Below are positions 2,234 to 17,118 of a stretch of 64,000 nucleotides of DNA, in pieces. The notes beneath the pieces are model-generated. The model was given only the letters and a program-made list of their open reading frames with translations. It made no database searches and had not been told where the DNA came from. Both the position numbers and the translations under genes were made by a program. This DNA comes from Winogradskyella sp. (GTDB lineage: Bacteria; Bacteroidota; Bacteroidia; Flavobacteriales; Flavobacteriaceae): positions 31,474-95,473 of the forward strand of contig JABDKL010000115.1 in NCBI GenBank assembly GCA_013002225.1, read 5' to 3'. Numbering within the stretch: the first letter of the stretch is position 1; each line of letters begins with the position of its first letter.

Positions 2234-3253
2234 ATGTTTAGTTTAAAAGATAAATCTATACTAATAACTGGAGGGACAGGGTCATTAGGGAAAGCGCTTA
2301 CTAGTCATATTTTAAGGCAATACCCTGAGGTCAAGAAACTTGTTATATTTTCTAGGGACGAACAGAAGCAATTTCAAATGGCTCAAGAATATCCTATAGA
2401 CAAATACCCCCAAATACGGTTTTTTATTGGAGATGTTAGAGACAAAGAAAGGTTAATTAGGGCTTTTCAGCGTATAGATTACGTTATACATGCCGCTGCA
2501 ATGAAACACGTGCATATTGCAGAATACAATCCAGATGAATGTATTAAAACAAACATAAATGGTGCAGAAAATGTAGTGGACGCCTGTTTAAGAACAAACG
2601 TTACAAGAGTCGTTGCCTTGTCGACAGATAAGGCTTGCGCCCCAATAAACTTATATGGTGCTACTAAATTAACATCAGATAAACTATTTATAGCAGCCAA
2701 TAATATTAAAGGAGATAATCCTATTAAATTTTCGGTAGTTAGATACGGAAATGTTATGGGGTCTAATGGCTCAGTGATACCATTCTTTATAAACAAAAAG
2801 AAAGAAGAGAACAAATTACCAATTACAGATCCAAATATGACGCGATTTAATATCTCACTTCAAGGGGGTGTTGAGATGGTCATGCATGCTTTAGAACATG
2901 CTTGGGGTGGTGAACTTTTTGTTCCAAAAATCCCATCGTACAAAATTATGGATGTAGCAGAAGCTATAGGACCAGATTGTGAGAAACCTGTGGTTGGAAT
3001 TAGACCAGGTGAAAAAGTTCACGAAGAAATGATAACCGCTTCAGATTCTTTTTACACATATGATCTGGGTAAGTATTACACAATTTTACCTGCAATGCAC
3101 CAATGGAATTTAGAAGATTATATTTCTGCCTTTAATGCAAAGAAGGTGGCACAAGGATTTAGCTATAATTCTGGTGAGAACGAGGATTGGGAAACAGTAG
3201 AGTCTTTACGCCAACTGATTAAAGAGCATGTCGATTCAACTTTTAGTGTATAA
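2234..3253 (+). CDS. pseB: UDP-N-acetylglucosamine 4,6-dehydratase (inverting)
   Basis: PseB dehydrates UDP-GlcNAc at C4/C6 and inverts C5, the first step of CMP-pseudaminic acid synthesis. The Rossmann motif ITGGTGSLG is at residues 11-19. The catalytic residues D132 and K133 in STDKA and Y141 in LYGATK fall at the same numbers known for the Helicobacter enzyme FlaA1. At 339 residues the length is typical. Its stop overlaps the pseC start by one base (TAATG), so the two genes are tightly coupled. Pathway assignment is strengthened by pseC, pseF, pseG and pseI downstream. Confidence 0.97.
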   Translation: MFSLKDKSILITGGTGSLGKALTSHILRQYPEVKKLVIFSRDEQKQFQMAQEYPIDKYPQIRFFIGDVRDKERLIRAFQRIDYVIHAAAMKHVHIAEYNPDECIKTNINGAENVVDACLRTNVTRVVALSTDKACAPINLYGATKLTSDKLFIAANNIKGDNPIKFSVVRYGNVMGSNGSVIPFFINKKKEENKLPITDPNMTRFNISLQGGVEMVMHALEHAWGGELFVPKIPSYKIMDVAEAIGPDCEKPVVGIRPGEKVHEEMITASDSFYTYDLGKYYTILPAMHQWNLEDYISAFNAKKVAQGFSYNSGENEDWETVESLRQLIKEHVDSTFSV

Positions 3254-4413
3254 TGGATAACAGTGTAATACCATACGGGAGACAAAACATAGATCAAAAT
3301 GATATCGATGCTGTAGTTAATACTTTAATCGCAGATTTTTTAACTCAAGGCCCTAAGGTTAAGGAATTTGAAGATAAATTCGCCAGATATGTCAATGCTA
3401 AGTACGCTGTTGCAGTATCTAATGCAACAGCAGGATTGCATATTGCTGTAATGGCGCTAGACTTAAAACCCGGTGAACGTGTAATCACCACACCCATTAC
3501 TTTTGCTGCCTCAGCTAACTGCGTAAGATATTGCGATGGTGAGGTTTGGTTTGCCGACATAGATAAAGATACTTATACATTATCTCTAGAAAGTACTAAA
3601 GAATTAATAGAGAGTAAACCCAAAGGTTTTTTTAAAGGTATTATACCTGTTGATTTTGCAGGCTTACCCGTAAATCTTGAAGCATTTAGAGCTTTAGCCG
3701 ATAAGCACGATTTGTGGATTATTGAAGACGCTTGCCATGCACCAGGAGGTTATTTTACAGATTCTAAAGGAAAACAACAATGGTGTGGTAATGGAAATTA
3801 TGCTGATATCGGTATTTTTTCGTTTCACCCTGTAAAGCATATTGCTTGCGGAGAGGGCGGTATGGTAACCACGAATTCAGAAGCATTATATAAAAGGCTT
3901 TCTAAGTTAAGAACCCACGGTATTACTAAAGAGAACATGGGAGAAAATCACGGAGGCTGGTATTATGAAATGCAAGAGTTAGGGTACAATTATAGACTTA
4001 CAGATATACAGTCTGCCTTAGGGATTACCCAACTTGCAAAAAACGATTTAGGTGTTGTTAGACGCAATGAAATTGCCAGTAACTACAAAAGGGCTTTTAA
4101 AGATAAAATAAAGTATCAGAGCCTGCCAAAGGGTGCTTATAATGCACATCATTTGTTTATTATAGAAGTTGAAGATAGAAAAGGACTTTATGACTATCTG
4201 AGGACTCAGAATATTTTTACTCAAATACACTACATACCAGTACATACTTTACCTTATTATAAAGAAATAGGATATGGTGATGCAGATCTGAATAATGCAG
4301 AAGACTATTACTCTAAGTGTATTAGTCTTCCGATGTATCCTACTTTAGAAGAAGAGAAACAAACTTATGTTATCGATAGGATATTAGAATTCCTGGAGAA
4401 AAACACTAAATGA
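3253..4413 (+). CDS. pseC: UDP-4-amino-4,6-dideoxy-N-acetyl-beta-L-altrosamine transaminase
   Basis: PseC is a PLP enzyme of the DegT/DnrJ/EryC1 family that transfers an amino group from glutamate to C4 of the PseB product. The PLP lysine is K195 in FSFHPVKHIACGEGGM, and the aspartate that contacts the PLP nitrogen is D159 in IIEDACHA. The length of 386 residues is usual. It follows pseB with a one-base overlap and overlaps the next gene by 4 nt. The free 4-amino group it creates is normally acetylated by PseH, which is not found in this cluster. Confidence 0.96.
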   Translation: MDNSVIPYGRQNIDQNDIDAVVNTLIADFLTQGPKVKEFEDKFARYVNAKYAVAVSNATAGLHIAVMALDLKPGERVITTPITFAASANCVRYCDGEVWFADIDKDTYTLSLESTKELIESKPKGFFKGIIPVDFAGLPVNLEAFRALADKHDLWIIEDACHAPGGYFTDSKGKQQWCGNGNYADIGIFSFHPVKHIACGEGGMVTTNSEALYKRLSKLRTHGITKENMGENHGGWYYEMQELGYNYRLTDIQSALGITQLAKNDLGVVRRNEIASNYKRAFKDKIKYQSLPKGAYNAHHLFIIEVEDRKGLYDYLRTQNIFTQIHYIPVHTLPYYKEIGYGDADLNNAEDYYSKCISLPMYPTLEEEKQTYVIDRILEFLEKNTK

Positions 4414-5285
4414 TAGATAAATTAATATTAGGAACAGTACAATTAGGCTTAGACTACGGTATTAACAATTTCTCAGGTAAACCCTCACAAGAGGAAGCCT
4501 TTTCTATATTAAATTATGCGTACGATCAAGGTCTTAGAAAACTTGACACTGCTGAGGCCTATGGAAATTCAATTGATGTCATCGGAGCTTATCACAATGC
4601 GTATCCTAACAAGCGATTTGATATTATAAGTAAACTAAGTCCATTGGTTGATGTAGCAAAAATAGATCTAAGAAGCCATGTTGATAAATCATTAAATATA
4701 CTATCCATAAAACAGTTATATGCCTACATGTTTCATAGCTATAACAGCTTAAAATCAAAGCCATCACTATTTAATGAATTTATAGAATTAAAAAATAAGG
4801 GAATCGTCAAAAACATAGGTATTTCAGTATATACTAATGATGAAATTGAAGATATTATTGAAAACTTTGATGAATTTGATTTTATCCAAATACCATTTAA
4901 CCTTCTAGATAATTCTAAAAGACGAAAGACCTTAGTAGAAAAAGCAAAACAAAAAGACATAGACACACATACCAGATCCACCTTTTTACAAGGGCTTTTT
5001 TTTAAAAATGATCAAGAATTACAATCTAAACTATTGCCTCTAAAACCCTATTTGTCTAGACTAAATTCTATTGCAAATCGCTGGCAAATTCCTATAGCAG
5101 ATTTGGCAATACAATATGTTTTACAAAAAGAATATATAAAAAATGTATTGATAGGTGTTGAAACCAGAGCACAATTAGAATCAAATCTTGTAATTTGCAA
5201 AAAATATAGAGCCTTAGATTGGACAGAGGTCGATGAAATCGACGTAAAAGAATTAGATTTACTTAATCCTGCAAATTGGATTTAA
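4410..5285 (+). CDS. Aldo/keto reductase in the pseudaminic acid operon
   Basis: This 291-residue protein has the aldo/keto reductase signature: LGTVQLGLDYGI at the N terminus and a catalytic tetrad D46, Y51 (LDTAEAYGNS), K75 (IISKL) and H109 (MFHSYN). It should be a cytoplasmic NADP-dependent reductase. It overlaps pseC by 4 nt, so it belongs to the operon. The standard CMP-Pse pathway needs no such reductase, so it probably makes or trims a sugar modification; that role is inferred from position only. Confidence 0.85.
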   Translation: MIDKLILGTVQLGLDYGINNFSGKPSQEEAFSILNYAYDQGLRKLDTAEAYGNSIDVIGAYHNAYPNKRFDIISKLSPLVDVAKIDLRSHVDKSLNILSIKQLYAYMFHSYNSLKSKPSLFNEFIELKNKGIVKNIGISVYTNDEIEDIIENFDEFDFIQIPFNLLDNSKRRKTLVEKAKQKDIDTHTRSTFLQGLFFKNDQELQSKLLPLKPYLSRLNSIANRWQIPIADLAIQYVLQKEYIKNVLIGVETRAQLESNLVICKKYRALDWTEVDEIDVKELDLLNPANWI

Positions 5286-5295
5286 AACATTTACT

Positions 5296-6069
5296 ATGAA
5301 CTTATTTAAAGACATAGAGAGTCGCGTAATCATAATAACGGGCGGATATGGTCACTTAGGCGCAACTATGTGTGAGGTATTAGCCGATTACGGAGGCAAG
5401 GTGTATGTGGCGGGCCGTAGCAAAGAAAAATTTGATGACCGTTTTAATGCTGTTAGTGGTGATATTAATTTTGTTAGAATGGATGTTAAAAATAAGGCCT
5501 CTATAACAACTGCTTTTGAATCTATATACAAGACCGAAAAGCAAATTGATGTACTAATTAACAATGCCCATTTTGGCGCTACAGACCATCCTGAGAAGCT
5601 TTCGGCAGAAGATTGGCGAATTGGTATGGAGGGAGGAATTAATCACTACTTTGATACTATAATGGCAGTTATTCCATTTCTTAAAAAATCGGAAAATGGT
5701 AAAATTATTAATATCGCTTCAATGTATGGTGTCGTTGTGCCAGATCTAAGTATTTATGATGGTAGGGAAGAACTGCTAAACCCTGCTAATTATGGGACTT
5801 CTAAAGCAGCCGTAATCCATTTGTCTAAATATTATGCAATGTATTTGGCAAAATATAATATTAATGTTAATTCTGTTTCTCCAGGACCATTTCCTTCAGA
5901 GGCTGTCCAAAAAGACTCCGCATTTATAAAACGATTGGAAGAAAAAAGCAAGTTAAAACGTATAGGAATGCCTAAAGACCTAAAAGGTATAGTTTTATTA
6001 TTATCATCAAACGCCTCTAATTATATTACAGGCCAAAATATAGTAGTAGATGGTGGTTGGACATTATAA
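5296..6069 (+). CDS. SDR family oxidoreductase (first of two)
   Basis: Classical short-chain dehydrogenase/reductase of 257 residues. The cofactor loop is TGGYGHLG (15-22), NNA lies at 89-91, and the catalytic residues are S142 (INIASMYG), Y166 and K170 (YGTSK). The C-terminal VVDGGWTL is typical of 3-oxoacyl-reductase-like and sugar-modifying SDRs. The gene overlaps pseF by 20 nt. It is not part of the known CMP-Pse route. The substrate cannot be read from sequence; with the aldo/keto reductase it may build a side group or alter a stereocentre. Confidence 0.85.
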   Translation: MNLFKDIESRVIIITGGYGHLGATMCEVLADYGGKVYVAGRSKEKFDDRFNAVSGDINFVRMDVKNKASITTAFESIYKTEKQIDVLINNAHFGATDHPEKLSAEDWRIGMEGGINHYFDTIMAVIPFLKKSENGKIINIASMYGVVVPDLSIYDGREELLNPANYGTSKAAVIHLSKYYAMYLAKYNINVNSVSPGPFPSEAVQKDSAFIKRLEEKSKLKRIGMPKDLKGIVLLLSSNASNYITGQNIVVDGGWTL

Positions 6070-6898
6070 GATAGGAGCAATAATTCAAGCAAGATTAGGG
6101 TCGTACCGCCTACCAAATAAGGTTTTAATGCCAATGCCCGTAGGTAGTAAGGAGAGTATATTGTCGCGAATTATCAAATCTTTGGGTAAAACAGCGATGA
6201 TAGATAAGATTTACGTGGCAACTTCGGTAAACCAACTGAATGATCCTATAGAAGAAATTTGTAAAAGTCTAACTATACATTGTTTTAGAGGAAGTGAAGA
6301 CAATGTATTATCTAGGTTTTATAATATTATTAAAAATGAAGATTTTGATTTTGTGCTTAGATTTACCGCAGACAACCCAATAATAGATCAGAATTATCTC
6401 GAGGTATTTATAATTAATCATTTAAAAAAGCAATTGGATTATTCCTCAAGTAAGGGCTTACCCTTAGGTTGCAATTTCGAAATGTTTAAATCCGAAACTA
6501 TTATTGCTGCTCAAAAACACACCTCAGACATCTATGACAAAGAGCACGTTACACCTTATATAAAAAGACATTACAACAACCTAGAGACCTATATTTTTGA
6601 AATGGAAGAAAAGGTGTCTAATTTTAGGTTTACTATTGATTATGCATCAGATTATGCATTTATTAATTTAATGTACAGTATGTTGAATAGAGAAAATAAA
6701 TATTCTGTTCATGATTTCATCAGTTTAATTAAAGAAAATCAATGGCTTAAAGATATAAATAGTATCAATATACAGAAAGTAAAGGTGGAGACTTTATATG
6801 AAGAAATTAATCTTATTTTACCAATAGCGAAACAATTGGAGCTGGGAAGATTGACTAATCTATTAGAAAATGAAAGGGAAAAAAACACTAATATTTAG
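6050..6898 (+). CDS. pseF: Pseudaminic acid cytidylyltransferase, SpsF/PseF type
   Basis: This 282-residue nucleotidyltransferase begins with the CMP-sugar synthetase motif IIQARLGSYRLPNKVL and continues with the acidic metal site FTADNP. It should activate the free nonulosonic acid with CTP. It is nested between a pathway SDR and pseG, overlapping the SDR by 20 nt and pseG by 29 nt, as expected for a coupled operon. It resembles SpsF-like family members more than short PseF proteins, so its exact sugar preference (Pse or a derivative) rests on context. Confidence 0.8.
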   Translation: MVVGHYKIGAIIQARLGSYRLPNKVLMPMPVGSKESILSRIIKSLGKTAMIDKIYVATSVNQLNDPIEEICKSLTIHCFRGSEDNVLSRFYNIIKNEDFDFVLRFTADNPIIDQNYLEVFIINHLKKQLDYSSSKGLPLGCNFEMFKSETIIAAQKHTSDIYDKEHVTPYIKRHYNNLETYIFEMEEKVSNFRFTIDYASDYAFINLMYSMLNRENKYSVHDFISLIKENQWLKDINSINIQKVKVETLYEEINLILPIAKQLELGRLTNLLENEREKNTNI

Positions 6899-7892
6899 AG
6901 CTGATGGTAACTCAGAAACTGGATTAGGACATCTTTATAGACTGTTTGCCTTGGTCGAAATGCTTAAACATAATTTTAACTTTGAGTTTGTAACCCAACA
7001 AGACTCTAATACAGAAGTCATTCCTGAATCATATTCCGTACATAAAATCCCCCAAGCAATAAGTTTAGAGGAGGAACCTAAATGGCTGTTTAAAATATAT
7101 AATCCAGAATCTCATGTATTAATCATAGATGGTTACCAGTTTGTTTCCAGTTACCAAAAGACCTTAAAAGAAATTGGTTTTCAATTTTTGTATGTAGATG
7201 ATTTAATGACCTACCATATGTTTGCAGATATTGTTGTAAATCACTCCTCTGCTGCCCGGTCCGATAATTTTATTTTAGAGCCATATACCAAACTTGCGTT
7301 AGGTGTAAATTATGCTTTAATTCGGCCAAGCTTCTTAGAAATTGCAAAGCGAAATCCTAAATTTCAACGTATTGATACGGCTTTTGTTTGTTTTGGCGGA
7401 TCAGACAAGTATAACCTCACTTCAAAAGCAACAGAGGCTCTACTTAAAGTGCCTTCAATAAAAAACATACATGTTGTAATCGGAGCTGCTAATAATGATG
7501 AGCACATCAAATCCATAAAAAACACGAACTCTTCTAAAGTAGTATTACATCAAAATCTTTCAGAGAAAGCATTATTAAATATTATGAAAAGCTGTAATTT
7601 TGCCATAGCACCGACTAGTACAATCTTATATGAATTAGTTTGCGTTAAAATGCCAATTATTTCAGGTTTTTTTGTTGATAATCAAAAATCTGTGTATTCC
7701 TGGTTTAATAAAAACCATTGTTTTTATGGTGTTGGAAATTTAACCAAATTTAATTTTGATCTAGTGGAATCTATAATTCTTAAATTAAACCAAAAAGCTT
7801 TTCAAACTGATATGTTAGCAAATCAGGCCAGAGTTATTGATGGAGACCAACAAGATAGATTTTTAAACTTGATACAGGATTTGATGAAATAA
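6870..7892 (+). CDS. pseG: UDP-2,4-diamido-2,4,6-trideoxyaltropyranose hydrolase
   Basis: PseG removes UDP from the doubly N-substituted altrose, giving the sugar that PseI condenses. It is a GT-B-fold hydrolase related to MurG. The N terminus carries FRADGNSETGLGHLYR, with the catalytic histidine of the GxGHxxR motif at H21. The UDP-binding half shows FVCFGGSD and the later APTSTILYELVCVKMP stretch. At 340 residues it is longer than the Campylobacter enzyme, but the C terminus shows no GNAT fold, so this is not a PseG-PseH fusion. Confidence 0.9.
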   Translation: MKGKKTLIFRADGNSETGLGHLYRLFALVEMLKHNFNFEFVTQQDSNTEVIPESYSVHKIPQAISLEEEPKWLFKIYNPESHVLIIDGYQFVSSYQKTLKEIGFQFLYVDDLMTYHMFADIVVNHSSAARSDNFILEPYTKLALGVNYALIRPSFLEIAKRNPKFQRIDTAFVCFGGSDKYNLTSKATEALLKVPSIKNIHVVIGAANNDEHIKSIKNTNSSKVVLHQNLSEKALLNIMKSCNFAIAPTSTILYELVCVKMPIISGFFVDNQKSVYSWFNKNHCFYGVGNLTKFNFDLVESIILKLNQKAFQTDMLANQARVIDGDQQDRFLNLIQDLMK

Positions 7893-7898
7893 CTACAT

Positions 7899-8588
7899 AT
7901 GCAAGCAGTCATTATTACAGGTATTAATAGAGGTCTTGGTGAAGCATTCTTTAATTTTTTTATTTCAAGAAGCGATTATTATATCATAGCAGTTTCGCGC
8001 AAAGTAACACCATCTCAAGAAAAGTTGCTTAAAGCCCAAAAGTTTACTATAGTTCACTTAGATCTAGCAGAACTTCGCAATCCGCAGGAGCAACTAAACC
8101 TTGATCAAATAATCCAAAACTACAAATCTATACTATTTATTAATAATGCCGCAACTATAAATCCAATAAACAGTATTGGTGATTTTAACAGTTATGATAT
8201 TTCAAAAAATATTGCTATAAACGTCACAGCTCCTTTAATTATTACAAATTATTTAATGAGTTTACTTGGTGAGAAATCTTTAAAAATTATTAATATTTCT
8301 AGTGGTGCCGCTAATAAAGCAATTGTAGGCTGGAGTTTATATTGCAGTTCAAAAGCTTCAACAGAAATGTTCTTTAATACCTTAAAGAAACAAGAGGCCA
8401 CAAATAAAAATATTGAAATTTATAATATTGATCCAGGCGTAATGGATTCTGGTATGCAGGAGTCTATAAGAAATTCAGACAGTGGTGTTTTCCCCAGAGT
8501 GGATGACTTTAAGAATTTGAAATCAAACCAACAGTTATTAAAACCAGAAAACGTAGTTAATTCACTGATCTCTAAATTAGGTATATGA
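7899..8588 (+). CDS. SDR family NAD(P)-dependent oxidoreductase (second of two)
   Basis: A 229-residue short-chain dehydrogenase with TGINRGLG at residues 7-14, NNA at 82-84, and catalytic S134/S135, Y148 and K152 (LYCSSK). The overall shape resembles sepiapterin or benzil reductase-like SDRs more than the first SDR of this cluster, so the two are not recent duplicates. It starts 6 nt after pseG and overlaps the phosphoesterase by 4 nt. Its role in the nonulosonic acid pathway is not known from any characterised system I can name. Confidence 0.83.
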   Translation: MQAVIITGINRGLGEAFFNFFISRSDYYIIAVSRKVTPSQEKLLKAQKFTIVHLDLAELRNPQEQLNLDQIIQNYKSILFINNAATINPINSIGDFNSYDISKNIAINVTAPLIITNYLMSLLGEKSLKIINISSGAANKAIVGWSLYCSSKASTEMFFNTLKKQEATNKNIEIYNIDPGVMDSGMQESIRNSDSGVFPRVDDFKNLKSNQQLLKPENVVNSLISKLGI

Positions 8589-9292
8589 AAATCGCAATAC
8601 TTTCTGATATTCATGGTAATTTTTATGCGTTTGATGCTGTATTAAAACAAATAGTAAAAAAAAATATTGATCTATATTTTTTCTTAGGCGATCAGTTAGG
8701 GTATTACTATGATGCAGAGGCAGTATACGATAAAATATCAGAACTTAATTGTCACATTATTGCAGGAAATCACGAAAGAATATTCTTAAAGTACCTTAAG
8801 GCAGATAGTTCCTATAGAGCAATGATAAATAAAAAATATGGCTCTAGCTTCTTTAAGTATGCTGAAAATTTCCCCGCACGTCTGACAGAATTTGTATCTA
8901 CACTGCCTAATAAGAAAGAGGTATTCATTGATGGTTATCGTTTTTTATTATGTCATGGTGCTCCACAAGATATGGATCAGTATATATATCCAGATGCAGA
9001 TTCAGAAGTATTAGAACAGGTAGATGCTGATAATTATGATTTTATATTTAATGGTCACACACACTATCCTATGATTTATGTGGGCTCCAAAACTTCGCTT
9101 ATAAATGTGGGTTCTGTAGGTCAATCGCGAACGGTAGGAGGGGTTGCAAACTGGGGTATTTTTAACACTAAAAACGGGTTATACGAACCACAAAATACTT
9201 TATATGATATTAAGGGCCTAGAAAACAGTTTAGACCCAAACGAAAAGGACTATTTATTTTCAATTTTGAGAAGAAACAATAATATAATATAA
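8585..9292 (+). CDS. Metallophosphoesterase (YfcE/MJ0936-like)
   Basis: Small calcineurin-like phosphoesterase of 235 residues. All metal-binding motifs are present: D8 and H10 (LSDIHGN), D36 (FLGDQ), N62 and H63 (AGNHE), a CHGAP motif and GHTHYP near the C terminus. It overlaps the upstream SDR by 4 nt. The UDP-linked pseudaminic route needs no sugar phosphatase, because PseI itself releases phosphate from PEP. The enzyme may act on a modification precursor; this is inference from operon position. Confidence 0.85.
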   Translation: MKIAILSDIHGNFYAFDAVLKQIVKKNIDLYFFLGDQLGYYYDAEAVYDKISELNCHIIAGNHERIFLKYLKADSSYRAMINKKYGSSFFKYAENFPARLTEFVSTLPNKKEVFIDGYRFLLCHGAPQDMDQYIYPDADSEVLEQVDADNYDFIFNGHTHYPMIYVGSKTSLINVGSVGQSRTVGGVANWGIFNTKNGLYEPQNTLYDIKGLENSLDPNEKDYLFSILRRNNNII

Positions 9293-9312
9293 ATTCAATT
9301 GAGATCAGCAGC

Positions 9313-10254
9313 ATGAGTTTAAATATACTAGTTACAGGATGTGGTGGAGATATAGGGCAGAGTATCGGGAAAATCTTAAATAGTCATAAGGACTTTAATA
9401 AGATCATAGGCTGTGATATCTCCGACAAAAACCCTAGTCAATTTATTTATGAGGATTTTTTCGTTAGCCTTCCATGTAGTCATCCAGACTATATAAAATA
9501 TATCGAAAGTGTGGTTGAGTCAAAAAAAATAGATATTGTTATACCTATAGCAGAACCAGAGCTTAGATTTTTTGCTCGTATCAACCATTTAGATAAAATA
9601 GGTGATGCAAAGTTGTTAACAGCCAACTTAAAGGCTTTACAAATAGGATTTGATAAATTAGAAACTTCAAACTTTCTAAAAAAGAATAATTTACCTTTTC
9701 CTAAAACAGAAGTCCTAGCAGATTCTAATAAACCTATAGAATATCCCGTGCTTATAAAATCGAGAACAGGATCTGGTTCTTCATCCATTTTTATAGCTCA
9801 AGATCAACACGATTACGATTACCTTAAAACAAAATACCCAGATTTTATAGTTCAGGAAGCGTTACCTTCCGAAGGCGGAGAGTTTACTTGTGGTTTGTTT
9901 AGAGACCAGCATGGCGAAATTAGAACTATAATTCTCAAAAGGGAATTGCAAGGTGGTTACAGCGGATATGGTGAGGTAATTATAAATAGCGAAATAGAAC
10001 AGTTGTTGATTGATATAGCAAAACATCTAGATTTAATAGGAAGTATAAATGTGCAATTAAGGCTTAGTAAAAGAGGCCCTGTTGTTTTTGAAATTAACCC
10101 TAGATTTTCAAGTACTGTACTGTTTAGGCATATGTTTGGATTTGAAGATTTAGTATGGACACTACAAACTTTGACCGACAAGCCTATCGATAATTATAAC
10201 AAAGTTACTAAAGGCCGAAAGTTCTATAAAGGATTTGAAGAATACATAATTTGA
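9313..10254 (+). CDS. ATP-grasp ligase in the pseudaminic acid operon
   Basis: A 313-residue protein with an N-terminal Rossmann-like preATP domain (TGCGGDIGQS) and an ATP-grasp fold: the lysine region VLIKSRTGSGSSSI, VQEALPSEGGEFTCG, and the Mg-binding motif FEINPRFSST. It resembles the carbamoyl-phosphate-synthase-like single-domain ligases found in sugar clusters. ATP-grasp enzymes join a carboxylate to an amine or similar nucleophile through an acyl-phosphate. It starts 20 nt after the phosphoesterase and overlaps the pseI region. With PseH missing, it is a candidate for adding an acyl or aminoacyl group to the 4-amino group (inference). Confidence 0.85.
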   Translation: MSLNILVTGCGGDIGQSIGKILNSHKDFNKIIGCDISDKNPSQFIYEDFFVSLPCSHPDYIKYIESVVESKKIDIVIPIAEPELRFFARINHLDKIGDAKLLTANLKALQIGFDKLETSNFLKKNNLPFPKTEVLADSNKPIEYPVLIKSRTGSGSSSIFIAQDQHDYDYLKTKYPDFIVQEALPSEGGEFTCGLFRDQHGEIRTIILKRELQGGYSGYGEVIINSEIEQLLIDIAKHLDLIGSINVQLRLSKRGPVVFEINPRFSSTVLFRHMFGFEDLVWTLQTLTDKPIDNYNKVTKGRKFYKGFEEYII

Positions 10255-10259
10255 AAGGA

Positions 10260-11312
10260 ATGATGAAAGAATTAAGCAAAAATAATGACTACATAAGCAG
10301 TGAAAAACCATGTTTTATAATAGCGGAACTTTCTGCAAATCATGGTGGTGATATCGAGGTGGCAAAAGAAACAATACGTGCCGCAAAATGGTCTGGAGCT
10401 GATGCAATTAAGATGCAAACCTATACGGCAGACACAATTACAATAAATTCTCGTAAGGACTATTTTAAAATTACCCAGGGCACACACTGGGATGGTAATT
10501 ATTTGTATGATCTTTATAAGGAGGCATCATTACCTTGGGAATGGCATAAACCGTTATTTGAAACTGCAAAAGAAGAAGGTTTAGTTTGTTTTTCTTCGCC
10601 ATTTGATAAAACTGCTGTAGATTTTTTAGAAGGATTAAATACTCCGATGTATAAAATTGCGTCTTTTGAAATAACAGATATCCCTTTAATTAAATATGCC
10701 GCATCAAAACAGAAGCCCATGATTATTTCAACAGGGATTGCAGGTGAAGAGGACATTAAGTTAGCAATAGAGGCATGTAATGAAGTCGGTAATGCCGATA
10801 TTACAATTTTAAAATGTACTTCAGCGTATCCTTCTTTACCAGAAGATTCTAACCTTTTGACTATACCAGATATAAGGGAGCGCTTTAAAGTAAAATCGGG
10901 ACTATCTGATCATACTATGGGAATTGAAGCTCCTATTGTGGCAGTTGCATTAGGTGCTAAAGTTATCGAGAAACACTTTATATTAGATAAGGCAATTGGC
11001 GGAGCAGATGCCCATTTTTCTCTTGATAAATTTGAATTTAAGAATATGGTAGATGCTGTAAGAAATGCAGAAAAAATCCTTGGCAAAGTTGATTACGAAC
11101 TGACAGATAAAAAAATGAAGAGTAGAGAATTTTCTAGGTCGTTATTTGTAACAACTAACGTTAAAGAAGGTGAGATAATAACAGAAAATAACGTAAAAAG
11201 TGTAAGACCTGGATACGGTTTACACCCAAAACATTACGCATCCTTAATGGGTAAAAAATTCAATAAGGATTTTGAAAAAGGAACACCGCTTAAATTGTCA
11301 ATGATCAATTAA
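10260..11312 (+). CDS. pseI: Pseudaminic acid synthase
   Basis: PseI condenses the PseG product with phosphoenolpyruvate to give pseudaminic acid. The NeuB-like barrel shows AELSANHGG, IKMQTYTAD, KCTSAYPSLP, GLSDHTMG and VIEKHFILD, and the C-terminal SAF/antifreeze-like domain is in about the last 60 residues with RPGYGLHP. I chose the ATG at 10260 because it follows the purine-rich GAAAGGA; another ATG is at 10263 and a TTG at 10251. The 350-residue length fits. It is the last clear biosynthetic gene of the run; a 128-nt gap follows. Confidence 0.96.
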   Translation: MMKELSKNNDYISSEKPCFIIAELSANHGGDIEVAKETIRAAKWSGADAIKMQTYTADTITINSRKDYFKITQGTHWDGNYLYDLYKEASLPWEWHKPLFETAKEEGLVCFSSPFDKTAVDFLEGLNTPMYKIASFEITDIPLIKYAASKQKPMIISTGIAGEEDIKLAIEACNEVGNADITILKCTSAYPSLPEDSNLLTIPDIRERFKVKSGLSDHTMGIEAPIVAVALGAKVIEKHFILDKAIGGADAHFSLDKFEFKNMVDAVRNAEKILGKVDYELTDKKMKSREFSRSLFVTTNVKEGEIITENNVKSVRPGYGLHPKHYASLMGKKFNKDFEKGTPLKLSMIN

Positions 11313-11440: not shown

Positions 11441-12697
11441 ATGAATAAATATTTAATACCTTCTAAGTATAATTTGTTTAAGCTTTTAAACTTAGCACTA
11501 AGAGTGATGCCTCTTGCTGTGAAATTTCTATTTTTCACAGTACTATCTAAAGCAATGCATCCAGAGGCTTATGGTAGTTATACACTTATCACAACTACCA
11601 TAACAATTTCTATTTTCTTATTAGGTTTTGATTTTTATAATTATTCCATAAGAGAAGTTCTGTTAACGAAGACTAGAGAATCACAAAAATTGTTTAGCAC
11701 CTTTTCTTTATACCTTACTATTTATCTACTATTTTCATGTGTTGCTGCTGGATATGTTTTTATGTTTGAAGATACCATAGGATTCTCGATTGAGGTTATA
11801 ATATATCTTGTTTTAATATGTTTTTCAGAGCATTTCTGCCAAGAAGCCTATCGACTTCAGATTGCGTACAAAAAAATACTATTAGCAAACGTATTGTTTT
11901 TCTTTAGAATATTTACCTGGATGATTTACCTTACAATCAAGGTTGTTGTCTATAAAGAAAGCCCGTCAATTGAATTCATTCTATATATATGGATGGTGTT
12001 TAATTTAATTACAGTTGTACTCAATATTTTGTCATCCTTCAAACCTATAATCAATAATTTCAGTAATCTAAGGCTAGATCTTAACTTTATAAAAAAGGGA
12101 TTGATCATAAGTAGTCTGTTTTTTGCAGGTACATTATCATTAAAAACTATAGAATATTTTAACAGATATGTAGTTGACTTTTTTTTGGGAAAGGAAATTA
12201 CAGGTGTATTTAGTTTTTATTCAAATTTAGCTTTAGTTATTTCAGTTTATATAAATGCAATTGTCATTTCATTTGAGTTACCAGCTCTGATAGAAAAGGG
12301 GAATAGCTCTGACATTAATCAATATTTTAAATCATTTAAAAGGTCTTTTTTAAAACAAATAATTATTATAGTTACACTTTTAATAATCGCCATATTTCCT
12401 ATCTTAGAATGGCAGAATATACCTATGTATAGAGATTATTTATATATTTTCTTTATATTGATTTTCGCATCAGCACTGATAAATTATTCCTTAGTATATC
12501 ATTTTTACCTTTACATCAAGAAAAAAGATAAGACGATACTTATTTTAACCCTCAAGTCTGGTGTTTTTAATTTAATTACAACGATTGCCTTAACATATTT
12601 GTTGGGTGTATTAGGCACTTGTCTAGCCTTCCTGTCGACAAGTATTTGTTTAATTTATCTTAGAAAAGTCGGTTCAAAAAAAATTGGATATGAATAA
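11441..12697 (+). CDS. Wzx-type oligosaccharide flippase
   Basis: A 418-residue very hydrophobic protein with about 12 predicted membrane segments and the N-terminal SKAMHPEAYGSYTLITT pattern of the polysaccharide biosynthesis/MATE-like flippase family. It should move undecaprenyl-linked repeat units to the periplasmic side. I chose the ATG at 11441 over the overlapping GTG at 11438. The gene overlaps the following glycosyltransferase by 8 nt. The 128-nt region upstream (11313-11440) holds no gene and no clear TAnnTTTG box. Confidence 0.88.
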   Translation: MNKYLIPSKYNLFKLLNLALRVMPLAVKFLFFTVLSKAMHPEAYGSYTLITTTITISIFLLGFDFYNYSIREVLLTKTRESQKLFSTFSLYLTIYLLFSCVAAGYVFMFEDTIGFSIEVIIYLVLICFSEHFCQEAYRLQIAYKKILLANVLFFFRIFTWMIYLTIKVVVYKESPSIEFILYIWMVFNLITVVLNILSSFKPIINNFSNLRLDLNFIKKGLIISSLFFAGTLSLKTIEYFNRYVVDFFLGKEITGVFSFYSNLALVISVYINAIVISFELPALIEKGNSSDINQYFKSFKRSFLKQIIIIVTLLIIAIFPILEWQNIPMYRDYLYIFFILIFASALINYSLVYHFYLYIKKKDKTILILTLKSGVFNLITTIALTYLLGVLGTCLAFLSTSICLIYLRKVGSKKIGYE

Positions 12698-13709
12698 CCT
12701 ATTTATTGCCCTATCTACACACCATTTAAAGTACTGCGAAAAAATAGCAGATTTAGATAAAACATCAAATAATATTATTATAACTAATAGCGGCTTTAAT
12801 GTAGATACAAAAATTTTTGATAGAATTGTATTTTTGAATAAATCAGCCTATAACCAGTCTAATTCTTTTATATCTAAGGCTAAACATATTATTGATAAAT
12901 CGCGCTCCTACAGTAAAGCTGTTAATGAGATTTCTGACCTTAAAAACGCAGAAAGAATCCGTCTTTATTATTCGTCATTAGAAGATATTTTATCTAATTA
13001 CTTATTGTTTAACTTTAATAAAAATGTCGAGGGTATAGTTATAGAAGATGGTGTTTTAAATTATTATGAACATACTTTGGAAGATGTTTCAAAGCTTACA
13101 TTTAATCTAAAAAAACTTATTGGTCTTGCCTATGGCTTAAAACTAAAAAATTATGAAGGTCACACGACTGGTATTGACTACGATTTAGTTAAGTGTCAAT
13201 TAGTACGTGAACCAAGTTATTCTATACGACCTCAAAAATCTGCGAGATTACCTTTAGATAGCCGTAAATTATCAGGCTTAAATAACAATATCTTAATCGT
13301 TGGGCAGGAGCCTTACGGTAATATGTACGGTAAAAGAATTTACATAGATAAGTTAAAGCAGCTAATATCTCATATTAACTTAAATACCAGCTTTAAGCCT
13401 AGTAAAACCGTGTATTATAAGCCCCATCGCCATGGACCTAGGATAGACGTTAATACAATTAAAGAGGCTCTACCCAATAATCATTTTATATACTTAGATA
13501 ATGAAGTTGGAATGGAAGATTTATTTTTTGAAAATATAAAGTGTAAGAATATTTATACTTTTGATTCGAGTGCTGTATTTAGCATATATTCAGAGGCTCC
13601 AGATAAATTTAAAGACCAGTTAAATATTTATGTAATGCCATTTCACAGATCTGTGCTCAACAAATTATTTAAGCAACTAAAATTCACAATACTGAATAAT
13701 GATATTTAA
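12690..13709 (+). CDS. Putative sialyltransferase-like glycosyltransferase
   Basis: I do not recognise a close family, but the layout resembles bacterial sialyl/polysialyltransferases (GT52- or GT38-like, GT-B fold). There is a VIEDGVLNYYEHT motif near residues 112-125, a YKPHRHGPR motif around 245-253 in the place of the usual nucleotide-contacting HP motif, and FDSSAVFS near residue 290. Length is 339 residues from the ATG at 12690. It sits after the Pse genes and flippase, overlapping both neighbours, so it is the best candidate for transferring the nonulosonic acid from its CMP form. Other glycosyltransferase roles remain possible. Confidence 0.6.
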   Translation: MNNLFIALSTHHLKYCEKIADLDKTSNNIIITNSGFNVDTKIFDRIVFLNKSAYNQSNSFISKAKHIIDKSRSYSKAVNEISDLKNAERIRLYYSSLEDILSNYLLFNFNKNVEGIVIEDGVLNYYEHTLEDVSKLTFNLKKLIGLAYGLKLKNYEGHTTGIDYDLVKCQLVREPSYSIRPQKSARLPLDSRKLSGLNNNILIVGQEPYGNMYGKRIYIDKLKQLISHINLNTSFKPSKTVYYKPHRHGPRIDVNTIKEALPNNHFIYLDNEVGMEDLFFENIKCKNIYTFDSSAVFSIYSEAPDKFKDQLNIYVMPFHRSVLNKLFKQLKFTILNNDI

Positions 13710-14949: not shown

Positions 14950-16109
14950 AGCAACCCAACCTAAACACCATTTCAAAATATGCTTATTATGGCCTACTTT
15001 TCTTTTTGCCATTGTCTACATTTTTAAATAATATAGCTCTAATAGTACTGTTTATAACAGTACTATTATCGAAAAAAGAACGTTTCAGTCTTAAAAAAAT
15101 GCTATATACAACTTTGATACCTTTTTTGGCATATGTAGTTGTATTGAACTTAATAGACCTTAATTTTGAAACTAAAGTTTATATTAAACTATTACCTCTT
15201 TTAATAATTCCATTTGTTTTTTACAATTTGAAACAAGACATAATTTTAAAAGGTTTAATATACCTGTTTATAGGAATTATTATCGCCCAGATTATAGCCA
15301 TAGTTGGCATTGTGCAATATTTTTATTTTACAGAGGGAAAAACAGTGGCACTAAGAAGCTATGCCGGAATTAACGAAATTTTACATTCTGAAAGGCCTTA
15401 TCTGGGTTATTTTTCTGCGCTTAATATAATTGTAGCATACTATATTTTCAAAAGCAAAAAACTATGGGTTTTTGTTATTTCTGCATTGTTTTCAACGGCT
15501 ATAATTTTATTAATATCGGCGCGTCTTGCATTATTAATATCGGTGATTTCAATAGTATTTATCTTGTTCGCTAGGATAAAAATTAATGTCAAATATTTGG
15601 TAGGGATCCTTGGCTTATTTGTGGTGGTGTTAACCATTTTTCTAAGTTTCAATAACCCGTTAAAAAATCGATTTCAACAAATTAAGTATGACACAAGACT
15701 GGTAATTTGGCAGGGAGCCTATAAAATACTTAAGGAAACCTCATCGCCGGTCTTGGGATTAAAAAACCAGACAAAAGTATCTAATCACCTCAATAATTAT
15801 TACGAGAATGAGGCATTTTTTGACTATCCACCAGATAGAGTTAGATTTGTTACCAAAAAATATAATACACATAATCAGTATTTAAACGAAATATTAAGAG
15901 GTGGTGTTATTGGTTTAGGTTTTCTTTTACTACCTTTTATTTATTCAATTTATTATAATTTAAAACAAGGTAAATTAGAAATTACCCTTTTCATTCTTTC
16001 GTTAATGTTTTTCCTTTTTGTAGAAAACCTCTTAGCAAGACAGTTAGGGGTTTATATTATTGCAATTATTTTATCATTATCAAGTATACAATTACATGAG
16101 AAACATTAG
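14946..16109 (+). CDS. O-antigen ligase/polymerase family membrane protein (Wzy_C)
   Basis: A 387-residue protein with about 11 membrane segments. It carries the Wzy_C pattern: ISARLALLISVISIVFIL, then RLVIWQGAYKILKETS in the periplasmic loop and THNQYLNEILRGGVIGLG, which contains the conserved histidine of the family. Members either ligate undecaprenyl-linked glycan to an acceptor (WaaL, or protein O-glycosylating ligases) or polymerise it. With a separate candidate polymerase just upstream, the ligase role is more likely. It overlaps the following lipoprotein gene by 14 nt. Confidence 0.78.
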   Translation: MKQPNLNTISKYAYYGLLFFLPLSTFLNNIALIVLFITVLLSKKERFSLKKMLYTTLIPFLAYVVVLNLIDLNFETKVYIKLLPLLIIPFVFYNLKQDIILKGLIYLFIGIIIAQIIAIVGIVQYFYFTEGKTVALRSYAGINEILHSERPYLGYFSALNIIVAYYIFKSKKLWVFVISALFSTAIILLISARLALLISVISIVFILFARIKINVKYLVGILGLFVVVLTIFLSFNNPLKNRFQQIKYDTRLVIWQGAYKILKETSSPVLGLKNQTKVSNHLNNYYENEAFFDYPPDRVRFVTKKYNTHNQYLNEILRGGVIGLGFLLLPFIYSIYYNLKQGKLEITLFILSLMFFLFVENLLARQLGVYIIAIILSLSSIQLHEKH

Positions 16110-17118
16110 TATTTTATTAATTATCGCATTAACCTTTAGTTGCGGACAAAATAAAAAAAATGGCACTGAAGAATCGACAATAAATATGGAGTATATCGAT
16201 TCAATGTATGCTATAAACACTGAGTTTAAAATTGGAGATGTAAGAAGATATGGTGTAGAACCAAGTAAAAGTATTGGTCAGCATCCTAAATTATTAAAAG
16301 ATAAGCTGGAAGTACTTTTGGATATCTCAGAATTAGGAATAGAACTTTATTTTCCCAAAGGGGTCTATGACAGAACGTTTAACATTGACAATAGAAAAAA
16401 TGTAAATTTGGTTGCTGATAGTGCTATCTTCACTGGTGCAGTTAATATAAAAAATTCAATAGATATAAAGATTGAAGGTACTATTACCTCCTTATCTCGT
16501 TTTTATACGCAAAACTCAAGTGACATCGATATTAATACTATTGTAACAAAAACAGATACTTTAATTAAGGGGAATACGTTAAGAAGTACTGGGTGCTCTA
16601 TTCATGGTGGATCTCATAATGTTAGCATCAAAAAGGCACACATTTTTGACTCCGGTTCAGGATCTGAACTTTACAAATATATTAAGGGTGGCTTTTTAAT
16701 ACATGGACATAACAACGAGCCAACTAATATTAAAGTAGATACTGTGATTGTTGAGTCTTCGGATAGGCATGGGGCTTACCTTTCGGGCGAAGACATTGAT
16801 ATAAAATTTTTACATATTAAACAATTTGGAATAGGTACAGCCGACAACATGGCTCCAATGGAAGGTGGTATAGAAGGCGAGCAAAAGAATTTCGCAGGAA
16901 TTTGGATAAAAAACTGTCACAATTCTTTTATAGACTACGCAAGAGTAGATTTAAAAAACTCGGGTGGTACATACTCAGTGAATTTTGATATTGGTGAAGA
17001 TTTTAGACCAACAGTTATTGAGGATTTACTAATAAGTGGTGTAGAATTAAAGCCTGATTTAGATAAACGAATATTTTCCAGAACTGGTGTAAAGTACTAT
17101 AACCTTACTGAAAATTAA
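16096..17118 (+). CDS. Lipoprotein with beta-helix-like repeats in the glycan cluster
   Basis: A 340-residue protein starting at the ATG at 16096 (a TTG at 16060 would add 12 residues ahead of the signal peptide). The signal ends in the lipobox LTFSC with C16 as the lipidated residue. The body has short beta-strand repeats such as VNLVADSAIFTGAVNIKNS and SIHGGSHNVSIKKAHIFDSG, typical of right-handed parallel beta-helix proteins that bind or cleave polysaccharides. It lacks a recognisable catalytic signature. The gene is translationally coupled to the ligase-family gene, so it may act on the same polymer in the periplasm or outer membrane. Confidence 0.65.
   Translation: MRNISILLIIALTFSCGQNKKNGTEESTINMEYIDSMYAINTEFKIGDVRRYGVEPSKSIGQHPKLLKDKLEVLLDISELGIELYFPKGVYDRTFNIDNRKNVNLVADSAIFTGAVNIKNSIDIKIEGTITSLSRFYTQNSSDIDINTIVTKTDTLIKGNTLRSTGCSIHGGSHNVSIKKAHIFDSGSGSELYKYIKGGFLIHGHNNEPTNIKVDTVIVESSDRHGAYLSGEDIDIKFLHIKQFGIGTADNMAPMEGGIEGEQKNFAGIWIKNCHNSFIDYARVDLKNSGGTYSVNFDIGEDFRPTVIEDLLISGVELKPDLDKRIFSRTGVKYYNLTEN

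What the first reader, a model, noticed from the sequence alone, without database searches (positions are those of the whole stretch)
2234..11312. Pseudaminic acid operon without PseH, but with an ATP-grasp ligase and extra reductases
PseB, PseC, PseG, PseF and PseI are all readable, with catalytic residues intact, but no GNAT-type PseH gene is present in the run or fused to PseG. In its place are an aldo/keto reductase, two unlike SDRs, a metallophosphoesterase and a carbamoyl-phosphate-synthase-like ATP-grasp protein. The known pathway needs none of these. A simple hypothesis is that the ATP-grasp enzyme acylates the 4-amino group with a carboxylate made by the reductases, giving a nonulosonic acid with an unusual N-substituent. 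The close overlaps between genes support a joint pathway.
Basis: partly seen in the sequence, partly recalled or inferred. Interest (0 to 1): 0.8.

Follow-up and report, generated by a model that had tools for sequence, protein, structure and literature searches.

The report
Sialic-acid-like sugar operon, PseH replaced
A bacterium appears to make a sialic-acid-like surface sugar in which the usual acetylating enzyme is replaced by a three-gene set (a reductase, a phosphatase and an ATP-driven ligase) that probably builds and attaches an unusual acid, and the same set turns up at the same place in related bacteria.

Summary
PseB, PseC, PseG and PseI are confirmed; the cytidylyltransferase is SpsF-type rather than PseF. 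No PseH lies in the run, fused to PseG, or (over cut-off) elsewhere in the 95%-complete genome. The idea that the ATP-grasp protein stands in for PseH gains comparative support, with a correction: only SDR2, the metallophosphoesterase and the ATP-grasp ligase (7899-10254) form the replacing unit; the aldo/keto reductase and SDR1 belong to a module that travels with SpsF. In 84 complete Pse operons, a PseH-type GNAT or a formyltransferase occurs in 59 of 73 without the unit and 0 of 11 with it (Fisher 2.4e-7). But 8 of the 11 hold some other acyltransferase, and L135 has a distant ATP-grasp/phosphoesterase pair together with a PseG-GNAT fusion. On the PseI tree the unit needs seven changes of state, so it moves. 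Best reading: the reductase and phosphatase make a short hydroxy acid (glycerate is my guess) that the ligase joins to the C4 amine of the PseC product, giving a Pse with an unusual 7-N-acyl group. The acid and the amide are unproven. Closest precedent: sfmE of Shewanella oneidensis.

The parts
2234..3253 (+). PseB, UDP-GlcNAc 4,6-dehydratase (inverting)
   Evidence: TIGR03589 503.8 bits, cut-off 407.75
3253..4413 (+). PseC, aminotransferase that makes the C4 amine
   Evidence: TIGR03588 457.7 bits, cut-off 423.5
4410..5285 (+). Aldo/keto reductase; part of a second module with SDR1 and SpsF, not of the acylation unit
   Evidence: PF00248 120 bits; distribution
5296..6069 (+). SDR1, classical short-chain dehydrogenase; same second module
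   Evidence: PF13561 139.8 bits; distribution
6050..6898 (+). SpsF-type cytidylyltransferase, presumed CMP-Pse synthetase in place of PseF
   Evidence: PF02348 105.3 bits; no PseF-type gene in this operon
6870..7892 (+). PseG, UDP-sugar hydrolase, without a fused acyltransferase
   Evidence: TIGR03590 181.6 bits, cut-off 153.55
7899..8588 (+). SDR2, sepiapterin/benzil-reductase-like; reductase of the three-gene unit
   Evidence: PF00106 93.4 bits; nearest PDB sequences an unnamed SDR (5if3), a ketoreductase, YIR035C and sepiapterin reductases; motifs invariant in 8 sequences
8585..9292 (+). Metallophosphoesterase; presumed phosphatase of the unit
   Evidence: PF12850 76.9 bits; model pLDDT 89.4, nearest 1nnw and SapH 3qfm
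9313..10254 (+). ATP-grasp ligase (PRK12767 kind); presumed N-acyl ligase replacing PseH
   Evidence: NF009402 209.1 bits (cut-off 218, just below), PF02655, PF21360; model pLDDT 86.2, folds like 2pn1, PurK and PylC
10251..11312 (+). PseI, pseudaminic acid synthase (start may be ATG 10260/10263)
   Evidence: TIGR03586 508.4 bits, cut-off 340.25

Best explanation
This is a pseudaminic acid operon in which the acetyl-CoA-dependent PseH step is replaced by an ATP-dependent amide ligation. SDR2 and the metallophosphoesterase prepare a small hydroxy acid from a phosphorylated keto precursor (or the phosphoesterase removes phosphate after ligation). The ATP-grasp enzyme activates the carboxylate as an acyl phosphate and joins it to the C4 amine of UDP-4-amino-4,6-dideoxy-L-AltNAc made by PseB/PseC. 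PseG, PseI and the SpsF-type cytidylyltransferase then finish a CMP-Pse bearing an unusual 7-N-acyl group. Shown: the genes, the lack of a PseH over cut-off, the exclusion of PseH-type GNAT and formyltransferase, the movement of the unit between Pse backbones. Inferred: which amine is acylated, the order of steps, the amide. Guess: the acid, glycerate being my first choice (about 0.25).
For: (1) Exclusion: GNATc (PseH-type) or formyltransferase between PseC and PseI in 59 of 73 complete loci without the unit, 0 of 11 with it, Fisher 2.4e-7. Without the four loci fetched through the ligase 0 of 7, 3.7e-5; without the window too 0 of 6, 1.4e-4. (2) Movement: the cassette label (12 rows) needs 7 changes, gains or losses, on the PseI tree; the window's PseI lies in a well-supported set of 9 rows, 7 of them GNATc loci. 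(3) Position: the unit stands between PseG (or GNATb) and PseI, where relatives have GNAT or formyltransferase alone or fused to PseG. (4) Linkage: in 359 genomes of the window's family the ligase (E up to 1e-60) occurs in 6, each at a Pse locus next to PseI. At 200 bits MPE and ligase occur together in 11 of 84 loci and apart in none. (5) Related ATP-grasps sit beside phosphatases of other folds and often a reductase: extended SDR + HAD (L127), HAD (L130), extended SDR + MPE (L083, L084, Acetoanaerobium L146), annotated histidinol-phosphatase + oxidoreductase (S. meliloti), HAD (Palleronia). (6) The window makes only one evident free amine: no PIG-L deacetylase and no ATIII aminotransferase in the operon. 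L070 is PseB-PseC-PseF-PseG-SDR2-MPE-ligase-PseI with no N-acyltransferase recognised in the operon. (7) In 12 genomes with the unit the best match to the PseH profile is 66.0 bits, against 181.8-199.3 in 3 controls. (8) The ligase model resembles PylC, an amide-forming ATP-grasp (recalled).
Against: Any acyltransferase that my models know (GNATa, GNATb, GNATc, FMT, FMT2, hexapeptide) lies between PseC and PseI in 8 of 11 loci with the unit and 66 of 73 without: not a significant difference (p 0.12). In those 8 (L005, L006, L007, L067, L068, L072, L076, L082) the unit could add a second acyl group; only the window, L070 and L083 are free of them, and L083 has a GNAT right after PseI. L135 is a counterexample at lower similarity: ATP-grasp (66 bits to my model) and a calcineurin-type phosphoesterase together with a PseG-GNAT fusion and PIG-L. 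PseI of the window is 72-77% identical to PseI of eight acetyl-type loci but 46-66% to PseI of the 11 other cassette loci, so nothing in PseI points to a special N-acyl. In S. oneidensis, which has sfmE (ATP-grasp) and no clear PseH, the nonulosonic acid seemed to keep a basic group such as an amine, and its outer part falls off easily in the source, unlike an amide (PMC3765264, passages; the contrast with an amide is mine). Fold and sequence do not fix the substrate of any of the three enzymes.
Confidence: 0.58

Rival explanations
1. The ligase unit adds a second substituent (on another nitrogen or later on CMP-Pse), and C4 acetylation is done by a non-homologous or unlinked acetyltransferase.
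For: Eight of 11 complete cassette loci also hold a GNAT, hexapeptide transferase or small formyltransferase between PseC and PseI. L135 has an ATP-grasp/phosphoesterase pair with PIG-L and a PseG-GNAT. C. jejuni 11168 carries di-O-methylglyceroyl at C5 (PMC3068675, passages). The own genome has GNATs of 20.8-45.9 bits to the PseH model.
Against: The window and L070 have no linked N-acyltransferase that I recognise, no PIG-L and no class III aminotransferase, so no second amine is evident. PseH-type GNAT or formyltransferase occurs in 0 of 11 loci with the unit. GNATs of similar score to the own 48.2-bit one are also present outside the operon in the three acetyl-type control genomes (57.9, 55.0, 45.3 bits), so it looks unrelated.
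Confidence: 0.25
2. The 7-amine stays free (mono-N-acetyl Pse) and the unit makes a group attached elsewhere in the glycan, as may be the case in S. oneidensis.
For: S. oneidensis: 274 Da residue read as mono-N-acetyl Pse with a basic group; outer 236-264 Da part thought to lack nitrogen; no clear PseH; loss of sfmE gives a slightly smaller mass shift than loss of the other genes (PMC3765264, passages).
Against: PseG and PseI normally act on the N-acylated sugar (recalled). The unit sits where the N-acyl enzymes sit.
Confidence: 0.1
3. The ATP-grasp enzyme attaches an amino acid or makes a carbamoyl-type group rather than a hydroxy acyl group.
For: ATP-grasp ligases often join amino acids (recalled); the fold is close to PylC and PurK. 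A carbamoyltransferase holds the same position in L112 and L121.
Against: An amino acid needs no dedicated phosphatase or reductase, yet such genes accompany related ligases with changing folds. One ATP-grasp of this length is not a full carbamoyl-phosphate synthase (recalled).
Confidence: 0.15

Closest known systems
Canonical CMP-pseudaminic acid pathway (PseB-C-H-G-I-F)
   Same: PseB, PseC, PseG and PseI orthologues
   Different: No PseH; SpsF-type instead of PseF; extra AKR/SDR1 module and SDR2-MPE-ligase unit
Shewanella oneidensis sfmABCDE flagellin modification (SfmE, ATP-grasp)
   Same: ATP-grasp protein and an SDR-like reductase in a Pse-like pathway without a clear PseH (PMC3765264, passages)
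   Different: SfmE is of the ATP-grasp_4 kind (412 aa), with a methyltransferase and a TPP enzyme; no phosphatase named in what I saw; S. oneidensis also lacks clear PseG, PseI and PseF
Pse operons with PseG-formyltransferase or PseG-GNAT
   Same: Same backbone and same acyl position before PseI
   Different: They use formyl or acetyl donors (by family) instead of an ATP-driven ligase
Clostridium acetobutylicum CA_C2186-2199 nonulosonic cluster
   Same: ATP-grasp ligase (CA_C2189) beside spsE, spsF and an epimerase (PMC4000134, passages)
   Different: Function not shown; no phosphatase in the part of the table I saw
Tannerella forsythia Pse5Am7Gra pathway
   Same: Pse with a non-acetyl 7-N-acyl group (glyceroyl) whose gene was called elusive (PMC6120980, passages)
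   Different: A pseH is annotated there; I could not check whether the unit is present

Membership tests
Canonical Pse pathway | PseB, PseC, PseG, PseI orthologues | tested here: met
   All four over NCBIfam cut-offs
Canonical Pse pathway | PseH GNAT acetyltransferase | tested here: not met
   Nothing over cut-off in run or genome
Canonical Pse pathway | PseF-family CMP-Pse synthetase | tested here: not met
   SpsF-type CTP_transf_3 protein instead; SpsF is a putative cytidylyltransferase of the Leg pathway of B. subtilis (PMC7439481, passages)
ATP-grasp carboxylate-amine ligases (PRK12767/PylC-like) | ATP-grasp fold with intact nucleotide and metal motifs | tested here: met
   Pfam, fold, invariant residues in 10 sequences; residue roles recalled
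ATP-grasp carboxylate-amine ligases (PRK12767/PylC-like) | Forms an amide or peptide bond | not testable with these tools
   Needs enzyme assay
NF009402 (carbamoyl phosphate synthase-like protein) | Score over curated cut-off of 218 bits | tested here: not met
   209.1 bits, slightly below
YfcE-family phosphodiesterase (TIGR00040) | Score over curated cut-off 56.25 | tested here: not met
   46 bits; Pfam Metallophos_2 is met

The most novel reading that the evidence does not exclude
Pse operons have an exchangeable acyl position that sets the 7-N group, filled by acetyl-, formyl-, carbamoyl-, KASIII/FkbH-linked or ligase-type enzymes. The window shows a little-described type: a reductase-phosphatase-ATP-grasp unit that makes a free hydroxy acid and ligates it to the amino sugar, a unit whose relatives recur in other amino-sugar and polysaccharide loci, also in Bacillota and Alphaproteobacteria.
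Probability: 0.47. Interest if true: 0.75.

Novelty: new variant of a known kind. Interest (0 to 1): 0.6.

Why it matters
Nonulosonic acids such as Pse resemble host sialic acid, and their N-acyl groups vary; for some, such as the glyceroyl of Tannerella, the gene was called elusive (PMC6120980). A simple rule (read the gene before PseI to predict the 7-N-acyl group) would help predict sugar structures from genomes, and the ligase could offer a way to attach chosen acids to amino sugars.

Tried and rejected
Distant PseH in the genome: not found, best 45.9 and 48.2 bits. PseH hidden as a PseG fusion: rejected. All five extra enzymes as one pathway: rejected by distribution. MPE as a substitute for PseG (LpxH-like): rejected for the window, which has both; loci with GNATb and no PseG occur with and without MPE. 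VIA-align was not available. Sequence and fold searches did not identify the acid. An ACP beside FkbH in L108: the 134-aa ORF is a glyoxalase-family protein instead.

Limits: bit-score thresholds for the domain counts were set by me after seeing the annotation, and the models were built from part of the same loci. Counts are for genes anywhere between PseC and PseI. Of 95 loci scanned, L084 has no PseI (94 left) and 10 incomplete loci (L036, L069, L071, L075, L102, L103, L109, L111, L113, L133) were dropped; L129 holds two operons and is counted once. L005, L006, L007 and L076 were fetched because they hold the ligase; L082 and L083 were ligase hits too, but both genomes came up independently in the PseI search. 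That the window's family and phylum are Flavobacteriaceae and Bacteroidota is my inference from the three named relatives. Mending after a recheck: L135 and the test with any acyltransferase were added; for these I lowered the best reading from 0.63 to 0.58, raised the first rival from 0.20 to 0.25 and set the novel case from 0.50 to 0.47 and the interest from 0.62 to 0.60.
Full report
Observation. The window lies at G000:C139:31474-95473 of a 2.99 Mb draft genome. Ten tightly packed plus-strand ORFs run from 2234 to 11312. NCBIfam confirms PseB, PseC, PseG and PseI over their cut-offs. The 6050-6898 product is a CTP_transf_3 protein of the SpsF type rather than PseF; in B. subtilis spsF encodes a putative cytidylyltransferase needed for legionaminic acid transfer (PMC7439481, passages). 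The remaining genes are an aldo/keto reductase (AKR), SDR1, SDR2, a metallophosphoesterase (MPE) and an ATP-grasp protein. Upstream are dTDP-rhamnose genes and downstream a weak Polysacc_synt match, a Wzy_C protein and glycosyltransferases, so this is a surface polysaccharide locus.

No PseH. The run holds no GNAT, and PseG is not fused to one. Genome-wide, TIGR03585 finds four weak GNATs, the best 45.9 bits against a cut-off of 93.1. A profile of 22 PseH-type domains from Pse operons (A4) gives 48.2 bits at best in this genome and at most 66.0 bits in the 12 genomes with the unit that I searched (G987, found later, was not searched), against 199.3, 187.2 and 181.8 bits for the operon copies in three control genomes. 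The draft is 95.1% complete, so a missed gene is possible, but the same is seen in relatives at 99% completeness such as G240 (47.9 bits).

Comparative anatomy. I collected loci around PseI from 397 genomes of the window's family (37 over cut-off), 395 genomes of its phylum (56 over cut-off; some shared) and around the ligase, and annotated them with profiles built from part of these loci, checking representatives with Pfam and NCBIfam. Of 95 loci, 94 have PseI and 84 are complete from PseC to PseI. The usual order is PseB, PseC, an activation module (PseF, or SpsF with AKR and partners), PseG or a GNAT of about 188 aa here called GNATb, an acyl enzyme, PseI; there are exceptions.

The acyl position. 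Between PseC and PseI, often fused to PseG, stands a PseH-type GNAT (GNATc; 44 of 84) or an ArnA/Fmt-like formyltransferase (16 of 84; L050 has both). Eleven of 84 have MPE plus ATP-grasp ligase, with SDR2 in nine (L072 has a methyltransferase and L083 a methyltransferase and an extended SDR in its stead). GNATc or formyltransferase occurs in 0 of 11 loci with the unit and 59 of 73 without (Fisher 2.4e-7); without the four fetched through the ligase 0 of 7 (3.7e-5), and without the window 0 of 6 (1.4e-4). The remaining 14 loci hold a carbamoyltransferase (L112, in exactly the window's gene order, and L121, with one extra ORF), KASIII plus GNAT (L060), FkbH-like plus glyoxalase, GNAT and methyltransferase (L108), other GNATs (L044, L056, L106, L123, L128), ATP-grasp with HAD phosphatase (L127 fused to an epimerase-type SDR, L130 fused to GNATb), a methyltransferase and WbqC (L122), an amino-acid-ligase-like ATP-grasp downstream of PseI (L132), or a hexapeptide protein and unassigned ORFs (L073).

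Evolution. On the PseI tree of 85 rows the cassette label (12 rows, the partial L036 included) needs seven changes, gains or losses, as many as supported branches force; the window's PseI falls in a supported set of nine rows of which seven are GNATc loci. So the unit has moved among Pse backbones. In 359 genomes of the family the ligase (E up to 1e-60) occurs in six, all at Pse loci already annotated (WIN, L036, L067, L068, L070, L072). In eight of nine loci SDR2 and MPE overlap by four bases. A further copy, SDR2-MPE-ligase-PseI-PseF, is in G987, a genome placed in another order.

Relatives outside Pse backbones. More distant ATP-grasps sit beside a phosphatase and often a reductase in other loci: L084 (ligase, extended SDR, MPE, DegT-type aminotransferase), Acetoanaerobium noterae L146 (DegT-type aminotransferase, ligase, extended SDR, MPE, a few genes from PseI, PseG and PseC), S. 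meliloti (annotated histidinol-phosphatase, ATP-grasp, oxidoreductase) and Palleronia (formyltransferase, ATP-grasp, HAD). I looked at three of 111 plasmid records with a match. The change of phosphatase kind suggests that removal of phosphate is what matters; this is inference.

Mechanism. The ligase model (pLDDT 86.2, pTM 0.86) is closest to 2pn1, PurK and PylC; PylC forms an amide bond (recalled). The MPE model (pLDDT 89.4) is closest to uncharacterised archaeal proteins and to SapH, an Ap4A hydrolase and phosphodiesterase, so phosphatase against phosphodiesterase is open. SDR2 is closest to an unnamed SDR, a ketoreductase and sepiapterin reductases. With one evident free amine in the window's pathway, the simplest scheme is reduction and dephosphorylation of a small phospho-keto acid, then ligation to the C4 amine. 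Known hydroxy-acyl groups on such sugars support the type of product: 3-hydroxybutyryl, 2-hydroxyglutaryl and malyl amides in Flexibacter maritimus and Flavobacterium psychrophilum (PMC3210612 and PMC4052302, passages), glyceroyl in Tannerella Pse (PMC6120980, passages), dimethylglyceroyl at C5 of C. jejuni Pse (PMC3068675, passages). An FkbH-domain gene cj1302 lies in the C. [quoted passage not shown] Glycerate is my first guess because of the phosphatase and the methyltransferase variants; it is not shown.

The other extra genes. AKR occurs with SpsF in 24 of 28 AKR loci and with ATIII or SDR1 in 27 of 28. AKR and the cassette are also associated (8 of 11 against 20 of 73, p 0.005), but L070, L005 and L082 have the unit without AKR. 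A plausible role is oxidation and reduction or amination at another carbon; an 8-amino nonulosonic acid is known from Flexibacter maritimus (PMC3210612). This is inference.

Counter-evidence. If every acyltransferase my models know is counted, 8 of 11 loci with the unit and 66 of 73 without have one between PseC and PseI (p 0.12): the exclusion is specific to PseH-type GNAT and formyltransferase. Free of any are the window, L070 and L083, and L083 has a GNAT just after PseI. L070 has an AlgX-like protein upstream of PseB, which by family is an O-acetyltransferase (recalled), and a 173-aa ORF without a Pfam match. L135 combines a distant ATP-grasp and a calcineurin-type phosphoesterase with PIG-L and a PseG-GNAT fusion; counting it as a unit locus gives 1 of 12 against 58 of 72 (2.4e-6). 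It suggests that, where PIG-L frees another amine, such a pair may act there. The S. oneidensis case, closest in print, was read as mono-N-acetyl Pse with a basic group, not as an amide.

Literature. Searches for 'pseudaminic acid' with 'ATP-grasp' gave three papers, of which I read passages of one (PMC3765264) and saw two only in the listing; 'ATP-grasp' with 'nonulosonic' gave that one paper. The library is open-access only. None of the passages I read describes this unit. A Vibrio operon with an SpsF-AKR fusion and a dehydrogenase, but with PseH, was described earlier (PMC7371886, passages).

Noticed in passing
L006, L007, L044, L047, L050, L052, L059, L061, L067, L068, L074, L076 and others: A GNAT of about 188 aa (GNATb) stands where PseG should be: 19 of 84 loci have GNATb, 63 PseG, none both, two neither. 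The 12 GNATb genomes searched show no PseG match at E up to 1e-8, against 3 of 3 PseG genomes. A Pse pathway without its UDP-sugar hydrolase is unexplained.
   Followed up: partly
L007, L045, L047, L053, L067, L068, L086, L101 and others: A module of AKR, SpsF and a class III aminotransferase, often with a GNAT, takes the place of PseF; it may make an 8-amino nonulosonic acid.
   Followed up: partly
L005, L058, L064, L065, L125, L126; L072 downstream of PseI: A small formyltransferase (FMT2) goes with a PIG-L deacetylase in 6 of 6 complete loci that have it between PseC and PseI, perhaps exchanging the 5-N-acetyl for formyl.
   Followed up: no
L112:10549-12228 and L121:7687-9363: The window's gene order (L121 with one extra ORF) with a carbamoyltransferase in the acyl position, hinting at a carbamoylated Pse.
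   Followed up: partly
L108:4643-9179: PseG, methyltransferase, GNAT, a glyoxalase-family protein and an FkbH-like protein before PseI, suggestive of an unusual, perhaps O-methylated acyl group.
   Followed up: partly
L135:10543-15309: PseG-GNAT fusion, distant ATP-grasp, calcineurin-type phosphoesterase and PIG-L in one operon: a possible second-site ligase.
   Followed up: partly
L083:16699-17697: A second NeuB-family synthase (PF03102, 142.9 bits) inside a Pse operon with the ligase unit; its product could be a precursor of the acid.
   Followed up: no
G000:C102:28462-29187 and G000:C148:27089-28048: The window's genome has two more NeuB-family matches below the PseI cut-off (232.9 and 226.1 bits).
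   Followed up: no
window 12684-13709 and 16060-17118: Two ORFs of the same locus without any Pfam match; the first could be the Pse transferase by position.
   Followed up: no
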